Source: a virus. From it: 62,780 nt of DNA. The notes beneath the pieces were generated by a model. That model saw only the letters and a program-made list of their open reading frames with translations, did not search any database and was not told the DNA's origin. Below are positions 7,731 to 11,083 of this stretch, piece by piece. Numbering within the stretch: the first letter of the stretch is position 1; the number at the start of each line of letters is the position of its first letter. The position numbers and the translations under genes were made by a program. The DNA lies in IMG/VR virus record IMGVR_UViG_3300007609_000001, positions 1 through 62,780 of that record; one strand, given 5' to 3'.

Positions 7731-8762
7731 ATGACAACAGTAAACCTTAACGAAGCAGCACATCTTGTCCGCACCTGTGGACAGACTAATACATTTATCT
7801 TTCAGGGCGAACCGGGCATAGGCAAGTCTGCCATGCTCCATGCACTGGCGGATAAGTCTGACCTTGAGCCGCGCTACATCGACTGCGCCTTGCTCGACTT
7901 GGGCGATCTGCAAATGCCCCGTGTGGGTGAGTCGGTAGAGTTCGTGCCCAATAAGATGTTCGTCGGTGACAAGCCGCTGATCATCATGCTCGATGAGATT
8001 GGCAAAGCTATGCGCCCGGTGCAGAATGCCTTGCTAGCCTTGTTACTTGAACATCGCATCGGCAACCACAAGCTGCCCGAAGGCTCCGTGGTGTTTGGCA
8101 CGACCAACATGGCAAGCGATGGTGTGGGCGATATGATGCAGGCGCATGCCCGTAACCGTGTGACTTTTCTCACAGTTCGCAAGCCTGATGCCGATGAGTG
8201 GATTGACTGGGGTGTGGGTAACGACATTGACCCGACGATCATGGCGTGGGTTAAGGAGTACCCGCAATGCCTTGCCAGCTATGCTGACGACCCGGATGGT
8301 GCGACGGATAACCCGTACATCTTTACCCCGCGTAAGCAGCAGGCTGCCTTTGTCACGCCTCGATCCCTTGCACATGCCTCGCATATTGTTAAGCAGCGAG
8401 CCAACTTGACTGATGATGTGCTGATATCGGCATTGTCTGGCACGATTGGTGAGTCTGCCGCGCGTGATATGCAGGCGTTCCTGTCGGTGGCTGATGCGCT
8501 ACCGCCGTTCAAGGCAATCATTGAGAAGCCTGAGACTGTTCAGGTGCCTGACTCGCCCATTGCCTGTGTGATTCTGGCGCTGGGTGCGGTGACTCGCATG
8601 ACTGCCGAGAACGTCGATGCGTGGATGACATACCTCGCCCGCTTGCCCCGTGAGGTGCAGTTCATGTTTGCCCAACAGGCGATGCGTAGTCGCAGTGCAG
8701 CTGTGGTTGTGAAGTCAAAGCACTTCACGGACTGGGCACGCGAGAACAGCTGGGCAGTTTAG
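7731..8762 (+). CDS. MoxR-family AAA+ ATPase
   Basis: A 343-residue single-domain AAA+ protein. Walker A GEPGIGKS (about residues 26-33), Walker B LIIMLDE (83-89) and sensor-1 Asn in FGTTNMASD (about 126). The downstream helical region RKQQAAFVTPRSL matches the MoxR type (AAA_5). MoxR ATPases usually work with a von Willebrand A protein encoded next door, remodelling or activating a partner. Here the next gene is an HExxH/VWA protein, so the pair is complete. The phage substrate is unknown. ATG follows AGGAGTACAGCG. Confidence 0.9.
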   Translation: MTTVNLNEAAHLVRTCGQTNTFIFQGEPGIGKSAMLHALADKSDLEPRYIDCALLDLGDLQMPRVGESVEFVPNKMFVGDKPLIIMLDEIGKAMRPVQNALLALLLEHRIGNHKLPEGSVVFGTTNMASDGVGDMMQAHARNRVTFLTVRKPDADEWIDWGVGNDIDPTIMAWVKEYPQCLASYADDPDGATDNPYIFTPRKQQAAFVTPRSLAHASHIVKQRANLTDDVLISALSGTIGESAARDMQAFLSVADALPPFKAIIEKPETVQVPDSPIACVILALGAVTRMTAENVDAWMTYLARLPREVQFMFAQQAMRSRSAAVVVKSKHFTDWARENSWAV

Positions 8763-8764
8763 TT

Positions 8765-8776
8765 TCCTAATTAGGA
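8765..8776. promoter_or_regulatory. Variant palindrome TCCTAATTAGGA, site 12
   Basis: Second copy of the compensated variant; 12 bases before the ATG at 8789. Counting flanks, symmetry extends to 14 bp (TTCCTAATTAGGAA). Confidence 0.85.
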
Positions 8777-8788
8777 AGGAGTACAGCG

Positions 8789-9943
8789 ATGAATAACTTA
8801 ACCCACGAGCAGCGACTACAACGTAGTCACATTTCCTTGATGCGCTCGCCCAACTTTGCTTTGTTGTCCGGCATTATCCTGCTGGGCACGAGCAGTGTGA
8901 AGGACGGTGTACCCACTGCGTACACTAACGGGCGTGACAAGGTGTATGGCCGGGAGTTCATGGACACGCTCGACGAGAAGCAGCTTAACTTTGTTGTGGC
9001 GCATGAGAACTTTCACGTTCTCTATAAGCATCTGACGACATGGCAGAAGCTATGGCAGGAGGATGCCAAGCTGGCTAATAGGGCGTGTGACTACGTGATC
9101 AACCAGCAGATACTTGACCTCGACCCGGGCAATAACTATGTGCGCTTGCCTGAGATCAACCTCTGCCTAGATGCGAAGTACCGAGGCTGGGATGCCAAGC
9201 AGGTCTATGACGACCTCAAGCAGCAGCAAGACGAAGGCGGCGGCTCTGGCGGTGACTCATTCGATGAGCATGGCTTTGACGATGCGCAGTCTATGAGTGA
9301 GCAGGAGCGCAAGGAGCTGGAGCAGGCGGTCGATCAAGCCGCGCGTCAGGGTGACATTCTGGCTGGGAAACTCAACGGTAAGACTAACCGTGATATCGGT
9401 GCGATACCTGAGCCGCAAGTCGACTGGCGTGAGCAGTTGCAAGACTTCGTGCAGTCTGTCTGTGCAGGGCGTGACAGCAGCACATGGCGCAGGCCTAACC
9501 GACGGTGGCTGGCTAGCGGGGCTTATATGCCTAGCCCCTACTCTGAGTCTATCGGCCCGGTGGTGGTCGCTGTGGATACCTCGGCGTCTATTAGTGCTGA
9601 GACTATCAACCAGTTCTTATCTGAGATTGTGAGCATCACTGAAGCCATGCCGCCTGAGCGCATCCATCTGTTGTACTGGGATACTAAGGTAGCCCGTGAG
9701 GAGGTGTATGTGCCCGGTGAGTATGAGTCTTTAGCCAGTTCAACCAAGCCTGCGGGTGGTGGGGGTACTGACCCGGGATGCGTCAAGCACTTTGTCGATG
9801 GCATGGGTACTAAGCCTGAGCTGGTGCTGGTGCTGACCGACGGGTACATATACGGCGACTGGCCGGACTTCAACGAGCCTACTTTGTGGGTGTCAACAAG
9901 CAACCGTGTCTCGCCTTATGGCAAGACTATTCACATTAAGTAA
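8789..9943 (+). CDS. DUF2201-type metallopeptidase-like/VWA protein
   Basis: A 384-residue two-domain protein. The N-terminal part holds the zinc-protease-like VAHENFHVLYKH (HExxH at 72-76), then an acidic Gly-rich linker (about 145-180). The C-terminal VWA-like domain keeps a full MIDAS: DTSAS (263-267), Thr327 in GGGGTDPG and Asp351 in LTDGY. This arrangement is that of DUF2201/VWA-like proteins, which pair with MoxR ATPases. It lies between the MoxR and DUF3150-like genes. The HExxH motif may be catalytic or only structural. Confidence 0.88.
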   Translation: MNNLTHEQRLQRSHISLMRSPNFALLSGIILLGTSSVKDGVPTAYTNGRDKVYGREFMDTLDEKQLNFVVAHENFHVLYKHLTTWQKLWQEDAKLANRACDYVINQQILDLDPGNNYVRLPEINLCLDAKYRGWDAKQVYDDLKQQQDEGGGSGGDSFDEHGFDDAQSMSEQERKELEQAVDQAARQGDILAGKLNGKTNRDIGAIPEPQVDWREQLQDFVQSVCAGRDSSTWRRPNRRWLASGAYMPSPYSESIGPVVVAVDTSASISAETINQFLSEIVSITEAMPPERIHLLYWDTKVAREEVYVPGEYESLASSTKPAGGGGTDPGCVKHFVDGMGTKPELVLVLTDGYIYGDWPDFNEPTLWVSTSNRVSPYGKTIHIK

Positions 9944-9945
9944 TC

Positions 9946-9957
9946 GTCTAATTAGAC
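9946..9957. promoter_or_regulatory. Palindrome GTCTAATTAGAC, site 13
   Basis: Two bases after the VWA gene stop and 14 before the ATG at 9972. Confidence 0.85.
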
Positions 9958-9971
9958 AAAGGAGTATAGCA

Positions 9972-10829
9972 ATGAGTATGTCAATTAGTTCATCTGCAAT
10001 GTTAGTTGATTTGTCAATCAGTTCATGGACGGCGCGTAAGCTCGACAAGGGCGTTACCGACGAGGTGAACACTAGCAAGCACGCCAGCCAGCAGGCATCG
10101 CGTGTCAATAAAAACCTACTGCCCGGTGTGGAGCAGCTCGACGGCATCGTCAAGCACGCTGCGATGGTGCGAAACTGGGTAGCTACCCGCACGCTGCCAT
10201 GGTCTGACTATGGCCCACGGCTGATCACCACGGATAAGTTCTTTGACTTCAAGCGTGAGCTAGACCAGTACGAGCGTGAGTTCCATGAGAAGGTGCAGAG
10301 CTTTCTGGATGTATACCCCACGCTCATTAGTATGCAGGCGTTCAAGCTAGGTGATATGTTTGACCGCGAGGAGTACCCTGATGTGTCTGAGCTTGCGAAT
10401 AAGTTTAGGTTCAACGTAGCCTACCTGCCCATACCGGAGACAGGAGACTTTCGTGTGGACATTGGCCGTGAGGCGCTTGATGAGGTTCGCTCGCAGTATG
10501 CACGGGAGTACGAGCAGCGCTTGGAGAACGCGATGAACGAGGTTCGAGATAGAATACTCAACTCATTACGTCACCTGTCTGAGCGGTTCACCGACAACGA
10601 CGACGGCTCGCGTAAGCGCTTTCGCAATAATGTGCTTGAGAACTTTGCCGAGACAATCGCCTCGGTGCGTGAGCTTAACCTGACTAAGGACGCCGCCATT
10701 GATGCTATGGCGCTTGAGGCTGAGGAGGCAATACGCGGTGTTGATGTTGATAGTTTGAAAGAAAGTAAGGAGGTTCGTGAGGATGTACGTGAGCGTGTTA
10801 ACTCAGTTCTTGATGCCTTTTCATTCTGA
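9972..10829 (+). CDS. DUF3150-like protein, third member of the MoxR/VWA module
   Basis: A 285-residue protein starting MSMSISSSAMLVDLSIS with AAAGGAGTATAGCA upstream. SSWTARKLDKGVTDEV, VNKNLLPG, the central LPWSDYGPRLI and KFRFNVAYLPIPETGDFRVDI match what I recall of DUF3150, a family found beside AAA ATPase and VWA genes in phages and plasmids. The C-terminal half is a long charged helical region. It is probably a structural or adaptor partner of the ATPase/VWA pair. Its stop overlaps the next start (TGATG). Confidence 0.75.
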   Translation: MSMSISSSAMLVDLSISSWTARKLDKGVTDEVNTSKHASQQASRVNKNLLPGVEQLDGIVKHAAMVRNWVATRTLPWSDYGPRLITTDKFFDFKRELDQYEREFHEKVQSFLDVYPTLISMQAFKLGDMFDREEYPDVSELANKFRFNVAYLPIPETGDFRVDIGREALDEVRSQYAREYEQRLENAMNEVRDRILNSLRHLSERFTDNDDGSRKRFRNNVLENFAETIASVRELNLTKDAAIDAMALEAEEAIRGVDVDSLKESKEVREDVRERVNSVLDAFSF

Positions 10830-11083
10830 TGCTTAGGGTATTTAGAGACGAGGATGGTGAGTGGTGGGCTGAGCCTTTACTCAAAGATACATGGGGTAGT
10901 GAGACCCAACGTGTAAGTTCTATTGATGAGTTTGATGACGAGGTGGCTGACCGCCTCGCCATTCTTTTGCACGTTGACCATAACGACCATGTAGAGGGTA
11001 TAGGTCGGCGCATTAGTAAAGATACGTTTTGGCTTTTCCACGAGGGTAAAGACTCGTGGTTACTTTCAGCTTTCAAGGAGTAG
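10829..11083 (+). CDS. Small protein coupled to the MoxR/VWA module, 84 aa
   Basis: The start overlaps the stop of the DUF3150-like gene by one base, so translation is coupled and the product may belong to the same module. It is acidic and Trp-rich (RDEDGEWWAEPLL), with no recognised motif. Confidence 0.75.
   Translation: MLRVFRDEDGEWWAEPLLKDTWGSETQRVSSIDEFDDEVADRLAILLHVDHNDHVEGIGRRISKDTFWLFHEGKDSWLLSAFKE

What the first reader, a model, noticed from the sequence alone, without database searches (positions are those of the whole stretch)
7731..11083. MoxR ATPase / HExxH-VWA / DUF3150-like module in the phage early arm
Three large adjacent genes encode an AAA+ ATPase, a protein with both an HExxH motif and an intact VWA metal site, and a DUF3150-like partner; a fourth small gene is coupled by TGATG. 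MoxR-VWA pairs remodel protein complexes in bacteria, but their job in phages is not known to me. Each of the three main genes has its own palindrome, so the module is under the same control as the takeover genes. It could be a protein-remodelling or counter-defence machine.
Basis: partly seen in the sequence, partly recalled or inferred. Interest (0 to 1): 0.8.

Follow-up and report, generated by a model that had tools for sequence, protein, structure and literature searches.

The report
Phage AAA–metalloprotease–DUF3150 remodelling module
This phage carries, among its early genes, a three-part ATP-driven protein-remodelling and probably protein-cutting machine whose parts stay together across many uncultured phages and conjugative plasmids, which points to a shared but untested job in helping mobile DNA establish itself or replicate.

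Summary
Observation confirmed. At 7731-11083 lie an AAA+ ATPase, an HExxH + VWA protein (Pfam DUF2201_N + DUF2201, catalytic and MIDAS residues kept), a DUF3150-like protein and a TGATG-coupled small gene. The three large proteins are a real unit. Of 80 phage loci chosen only by the VWA protein, 71 also carry the DUF3150-like gene (26 of 28 with enough flank), through at least five changes of gene order. All 7 loci chosen by DNA polymerase with enough upstream sequence carry the module, so in this phage group it is core. 52 of 54 Burkholderiales loci carry AAA-DUF3150-VWA. True Pfam DUF3150 sits in parallel AAA / CobT-like-VWA triads on IncC-type plasmids, beside ssb-bet-exo. The small gene is the C-terminal domain of a ~290-aa partner of relatives. 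DUF3150 folds confidently (pLDDT 93.5) with no solved match. A near-consensus sigma-70 promoter and the early-arm palindromes precede the genes. Best reading: a Midasin/CbbQO-like remodelling machine with a built-in zinc protease, made with the replication genes, acting on DNA-bound or host proteins. Target unknown; counter-defence and virion assembly are not excluded. The AAA+/VWA pair was known (N4 gp24/25); the three-part unit was not found described.

The parts
7369..7397 (+). near-consensus sigma-70 promoter (TTGACA-17-GATAAT, extended -10), upstream of the module
   Evidence: one of two 11/12 sites in 1500-14200; of 6 matches to TTGACA-N17-KATAAT with up to 1 mismatch in the window (0.28 expected) the only one without a mismatch
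7432..7695 (+). satellite small gene (87 aa), same family as a gene lying near VWA in 17 relatives
   Evidence: phrog_4367 weak; profile of neighbour family L129_9139 finds it at 4.7e-15
7698..7709 (.). palindrome GTCTAATTAGAC before gene 1
7731..8762 (+). AAA+ ATPase (AAA_5; Walker A GEPGIGKS, Walker B DE, N126, R143, R211 conserved)
   Evidence: (phrog_1297)
8764..8777 (.). palindrome variant TTCCTAATTAGGAA before gene 2
8789..9943 (+). HExxH metallopeptidase domain fused to VWA/MIDAS domain (DUF2201_N + DUF2201; phrog_1314, misnamed HNH endonuclease)
9946..9957 (.). palindrome GTCTAATTAGAC before gene 3
9972..10829 (+). DUF3150-like third subunit (285 aa)
10829..11083 (+). small fourth gene, TGATG-coupled; lone copy of the C-terminal ~50-residue domain of a ~290-aa partner family
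   Evidence: HMM 4.1e-14; family in 65-66 loci

Best explanation
The module encodes a multi-subunit ATP-driven remodelling machine. An AAA+ ring (gene 1) pulls on substrates presented by a MIDAS/VWA cofactor that also carries a zinc metallopeptidase domain (gene 2). A dedicated third subunit with a fold not seen in solved structures (gene 3, DUF3150-like) acts as scaffold or adaptor, and a small fast-evolving subunit (gene 4) tunes it. It is made with the replication genes from a host-type promoter and acts in the DNA-replication/recombination phase, most likely by extracting or cutting a protein bound to, or blocking, the element's DNA. Shown: gene identities, conserved catalytic residues, persistent linkage of the three genes, core status in this phage group, early-arm position. 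Inferred: physical complex, ATP-driven remodelling, proteolysis, DNA-phase role, substrate.
For: Family assignment and invariant active sites. The VWA fold matches MIDAS domains including human MDN1-MIDAS, and the best solved relative of the AAA is Midasin, 1.8e-34, the enzyme in which an AAA ring and a MIDAS domain work together. Triad linkage: 71/80 VWA-chosen loci have DUF3150 and 68 have all three, all on one strand; at least 5 order changes on the tree, with pairwise distances correlating at r 0.85-0.93; 52/54 Burkholderiales loci. Core: 7/7 polymerase-chosen loci with enough upstream sequence. Codirectional with DNA polymerase, Hjc-like nuclease and exonuclease families and opposite to terminase and portal families in relatives. 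Plasmid DUF3150 triads lie beside SSB/RecT/YqaJ or ssb/bet/exo. Promoter and palindromes.
Against: No biochemistry; no predicted complex (two structure jobs only, no multimer). Neighbourhood with replication genes is expected of any early phage gene. The Burkholderiales triads lie near PRTRC and T4SS genes, not recombination genes. N4-type phages do with AAA+VWA and no detectable DUF3150, so the third subunit is not universal. The third Zn ligand was not identified, so protease activity is inferred from HExxH alone.
Confidence: 0.45

Rival explanations
1. Counter-defence or takeover machine: the metallopeptidase-VWA with its AAA+ motor inactivates a host defence or host regulatory protein early in infection.
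For: Early arm, host-type promoter and shared palindromes; shared by phages and conjugative elements while the phage-type DUF3150 profile matched only the query genome among 399 sampled Pseudomonadota genomes; HExxH proteins of plasmids can act against restriction (ArdC, PMC7213743, abstract).
Against: No PADLOC match of note; module invariant in its phage group, 7 of 7, under strong purifying selection, whereas counter-defence genes are usually patchy; the pair is listed as core in N4-like phages (PMC7650795).
Confidence: 0.22
2. Virion assembly chaperone/protease, as proposed for the AAA + metallopeptidase-vWA pair of group 2.2 jumbo phages by Iyer et al. 2021 (PMC7824862).
For: Published proposal by analogy with a MoxR-vWA pair of an archaeal virus; some structural genes of phage RPP1 lie near N4 gp24/25 homologues (PMC4193335).
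Against: Opposite strand and opposite arm from terminase, portal and capsid genes in window and relatives; N4 gp24/25 are middle transcripts and are not among the N4 virion proteins named there; same triad on conjugative plasmids, which make no virion.
Confidence: 0.15
3. Auxiliary metabolic CobS/CobT pair that helps host CobN insert cobalt into cobalamin, as argued for viral AAA/VWA pairs (PMC8651126).
For: Same AAA+/VWA architecture; published reading of viral cobST pairs; the plasmid DUF3150 triads do carry CobT-like VWA proteins.
Against: The window's VWA protein matches DUF2201, not CobT/CobT_C, and has an HExxH domain; the CobT-like plasmid versions sit with recombination genes, not cobalamin genes.
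Confidence: 0.04
4. Superinfection exclusion or protection of the infected cell from competing phages or plasmids.
For: Early expression by position; MoxR-vWA ternary systems exist as predicted conflict systems in bacteria (PMC7159879).
Against: No VMAP, iSTAND or effector domain is recognised; lytic phages rarely keep such genes as invariant core (general knowledge).
Confidence: 0.06

Closest known systems
Phage N4 gp24 (AAA+ ATPase) and gp25 (metallopeptidase-VWA, often named HNH endonuclease), core genes of Schitoviridae
   Same: Homologous AAA+ and HExxH-VWA pair in the early/middle region
   Different: 22-30% identity to this pair; no DUF3150 anywhere in N4, Pollock, D468 or CRP-7
AAA - DUF3150-like - VWA cluster of Burkholderiales plasmids
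   Same: All three proteins homologous, HExxH and MIDAS kept
   Different: Gene order AAA-DUF3150-VWA; in one examined plasmid beside PRTRC/T4SS genes; no gene-4 family found
CobS-like AAA / DUF3150 / CobT-like VWA cluster of IncC-type plasmids and related elements
   Same: Three-part AAA + DUF3150 + VWA design
   Different: VWA partner is CobT-like and lacks the DUF2201 metallopeptidase; AAA has a CbbQ_C domain
Planktothrix/Synechococcus phages (MinM2, Pag-Yong1)
   Same: AAA, DUF3150 and VWA genes within 4.5 kb
   Different: about 26-28% identity, interspersed with small genes, order AAA-DUF3150-VWA
Midasin (Rea1/MDN1)
   Same: AAA ring working with a MIDAS domain; best solved relative of the AAA by sequence
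   Different: Single giant eukaryotic chain for ribosome assembly, no protease

Membership tests
MoxR AAA+ (Pfam AAA_3, PF07726) | score over the family's curated cut-off | tested here: not met
   20.7 bits against 27; AAA_5 and AAA are met
AAA_5 (dynein-related) AAA+ | curated cut-off; Walker A and B | tested here: met
   24.0 against 22; P28, G31, K32, D88 invariant in 15 sequences and position 89 E or D
DUF2201 metallopeptidase-VWA | both domains over cut-off, HExxH and MIDAS intact | tested here: met
   106.9 and 61.6 bits; residues invariant or nearly so
DUF2201 metallopeptidase-VWA | peptidase activity | not testable with these tools
   needs an assay
DUF3150 (PF11348) | curated cut-off | tested here: not met
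   P0003 22.6 against 24.9; three genomes holding relatives also give no PF11348 match
DUF3150 (PF11348) | homology of the family as a whole | tested here: inconclusive
   49 of 77 relatives match at E<=0.01, best 5.5e-8; profile aligned to a true DUF3150 protein with E 8e-4 but probability only 24%; a phage protein named DUF3150 shares the fold, TM 0.86
CobST cobaltochelatase | CobT/CobT_C domain in the VWA protein | tested here: not met
   no match in P0002
MoxR-vWA ternary conflict systems (VMAP, iSTAND) | VMAP, iSTAND or effector component | tested here: not met
   no such domain by Pfam, PHROGs, NCBIfam or PADLOC; third protein has no solved fold match
Known anti-phage defence systems (PADLOC) | significant model match | tested here: not met
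   only sub-significant matches, E 0.01 or worse

The most novel reading that the evidence does not exclude
DUF3150 defines a general class of three-part AAA+ machines of mobile DNA (phages, megaplasmids, IncC-type plasmids) that remodels or cuts nucleoprotein complexes so that incoming or replicating element DNA can be processed: a so far unrecognised step shared by lytic phages and conjugation.
Probability: 0.25. Interest if true: 0.85.

Novelty: new variant of a known kind. Interest (0 to 1): 0.62.

Why it matters
N4 gp24/gp25 have been core phage genes of unknown function for years and their relatives are still widely annotated as HNH endonucleases. Tying the same pair to a third, structurally unmatched subunit that is also carried by widespread conjugative plasmids (1168 plasmid records with DUF3150) makes the question testable in laboratory phages and plasmids, and suggests a step that phages and plasmids share.

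Tried and rejected
Chance ORFs: rejected by family matches, dN/dS 0.04-0.15 and linkage. HNH endonuclease (PHROG and GenBank names for the VWA protein): rejected, Pfam gives metallopeptidase + VWA. DUF3150 hidden in N4-type phages, CRP-7, phage G or Rhizobium phage RHph_TM3_14A: not found with profile searches. Solved fold for DUF3150: none. PF11348 in three genomes that hold relatives: no hit, so the Pfam model cannot be used to survey the phage-type family; the session's own profile was used instead. No paper naming DUF3150 was found in the held library.

Full report
OBSERVATION. The third gene's likely start is the ATG at 9972, behind AAAGGAG, not the upstream GTG at 9906. Gene 1 passes the AAA and AAA_5 cut-offs; gene 2 passes DUF2201_N and DUF2201; gene 3 reaches DUF3150 at 7.7e-5, just under the curated cut-off. 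PHROGs put gene 1 in phrog_1297 and gene 2 in phrog_1314, the latter misnamed HNH endonuclease. The TGA of gene 3 and the ATG of gene 4 overlap.

SELECTION AND RESIDUES. Against the closest relatives (L007-L009), dN is 0.07-0.16 with dS from 0.76 to beyond 2, so the three proteins are under strong purifying selection; gene 4 evolves faster (dN about 0.5). In 61 phage relatives the HExxH residues (H72, E73, H76), H81, N97, D101 and the MIDAS residues D263, S265, S267, T327, D351 are invariant (H72 in 60). In 18 sequences from phages and plasmids the same residues are invariant.

LINKAGE. A scan of viral contigs with the VWA alignment gave at least 557 relatives, of which the best 80 were kept. 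These were chosen without regard to DUF3150; 71 carry it, 26 of the 28 with at least 4 kb on both sides, and 68 carry all three, all on the same strand. The order is AAA-VWA-DUF3150 in 50, DUF3150-AAA-VWA in 16, AAA-DUF3150-VWA in 2. On a VWA tree of 91 loci the order needs at least five changes, while the set stays together, and pairwise distances of the three proteins correlate at r = 0.85-0.93. Correlation alone also follows from shared ancestry; the persistence through reshuffling is the stronger argument.

CORE, NOT ACCESSORY. Choosing loci by the DNA polymerase instead, all seven with at least 8.9 kb upstream carry the whole module. The sample is small. This argues against a patchy counter-defence gene set but does not exclude a universal one.

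FURTHER MEMBERS. Clustering of neighbours gave a ~290-aa family in 65-66 loci and a ~320-aa family in 60; neither has a known relative in Pfam or PHROGs, and the first has none in the cultured phage records. The window's gene 4 is a lone copy of the C-terminal ~50 residues of the ~290-aa family (4.1e-14); many relatives carry both a long and a short copy. The ~320-aa family is absent from the window but present in its relatives L010 and L028. The window's small genes at 7432-7695 and 6963-7361 also belong to families that recur beside the module.

STRUCTURE. DUF3150-like protein: AlphaFold2 pLDDT 93.5, pTM 0.84; no match among solved structures better than E 0.45; good matches to uncultured phage proteins, one named DUF3150 (TM 0.86). 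VWA protein: pLDDT 85; its VWA half matches MIDAS domains. The AAA was not modelled; by sequence its best solved relative is Midasin.

RELATIVES ELSEWHERE. Relatives of the metallopeptidase-VWA protein occur in 676 phage records; those examined in N4, Pollock, D468 and CRP-7 have the AAA gene nearby. N4 gp24/gp25 are listed as core genes (PMC7650795) and are middle transcripts (PMC4193335). Profile search finds no DUF3150 in whole records of N4, Pollock, D468, CRP-7, phage G and two plasmids. Plasmids of Burkholderiales and Rhodovastum carry the full triad, and 52 of 54 Burkholderiales-type genome loci carry it in the order AAA-DUF3150-VWA. Among 399 sampled Pseudomonadota genomes 21 match DUF2201_N (14 over the cut-off), and only the query genome itself matched the phage-type DUF3150 profile. 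Pfam DUF3150 itself is found in 9 of 399, and relatives of one such protein in 1168 plasmid records, 978 of them conjugative; in the loci examined an AAA_5/CbbQ-type AAA and a CobT-like VWA protein lie close by, in several with SSB, RecT/bet and exonuclease genes alongside. The link between the phage-type family and Pfam DUF3150 rests on weak but repeated matches.

CONTROL. The module follows a TTGACA-17-GATAAT promoter with extended -10 (7369-7397), one of two 11/12 sites in the early region and the only perfect match to TTGACA-17-KATAAT in the window. Palindromes precede genes 1, 2 and 3. In relatives L007 and L009 the whole set reads TCCTAATTAGGA, in L008 and mostly in the window GTCTAATTAGAC, at the same positions before AAA, VWA and (L008, L009) DUF3150: both arms changed together, as expected of sites read by a dimeric protein or folding as hairpins. 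Which of the two is open.

READING. AAA rings paired with MIDAS/VWA partners are remodelling machines in the cases studied (Midasin, CbbQO, RavA-ViaA, CobST; established knowledge). Here the VWA partner also carries a zincin-type motif, and in this clade a third protein is nearly always present. Early position, strand opposite to the virion genes, and the recombination-gene company of the plasmid triads favour work on DNA-phase complexes. I put about 0.85 on 'AAA+/VWA remodelling machine', about 0.7 on DUF3150 being a physical subunit, and 0.45 on the whole statement including the DNA-phase role. Two published readings of related pairs, virion assembly (PMC7824862) and cobalamin synthesis (PMC8651126), fit this module less well for the reasons given under the rivals.

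LIMITS. No expression data, no known host, no multimer model, no biochemistry. The 80 VWA-chosen loci are those closest to the query, so linkage is shown for this clade, not for all DUF2201 proteins. Some viral contigs with the order AAA-DUF3150-VWA may be plasmids.

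Noticed in passing
window 2110-11722: 15 CTAATTAG-centred palindromes, 13 GTCTAATTAGAC and 2 TCCTAATTAGGA, 11 of them just upstream of a Shine-Dalgarno and start codon; none in the late arm. In relatives the arms change together across the whole set (TCCTAATTAGGA in L007, L009).
   Followed up: partly
window 1-123 and 62658-62780: The last 50 bases recur at 74-123, consistent with a 123-bp direct terminal repeat, and the terminase large subunit gene runs across the ends: the contig is probably a complete genome.
   Followed up: partly
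window 23802-31805 (-): A 2667-aa protein with only an LPD38 domain recognised, probably a polyvalent ejected protein.
   Followed up: no
relatives L053-L132: A ~320-aa family (60 loci) and a ~290-aa family (66 loci) of unknown function travel with the module; neither has a Pfam or PHROG match.
   Followed up: partly
phage and PHROG annotation (phrog_1314): Metallopeptidase-VWA proteins are widely named HNH endonuclease in phage records, which looks like a propagated misannotation.
   Followed up: partly
L241 (IncC plasmid pNE1127-2): AAA, ssb, bet, lambda-type exonuclease, DUF3150 and VWA genes form one run, linking the triad to recombination genes.
   Followed up: partly
window 5712-6104: Small endolysin-like protein (phrog_938) inside the early arm, away from the late genes.
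   Followed up: no
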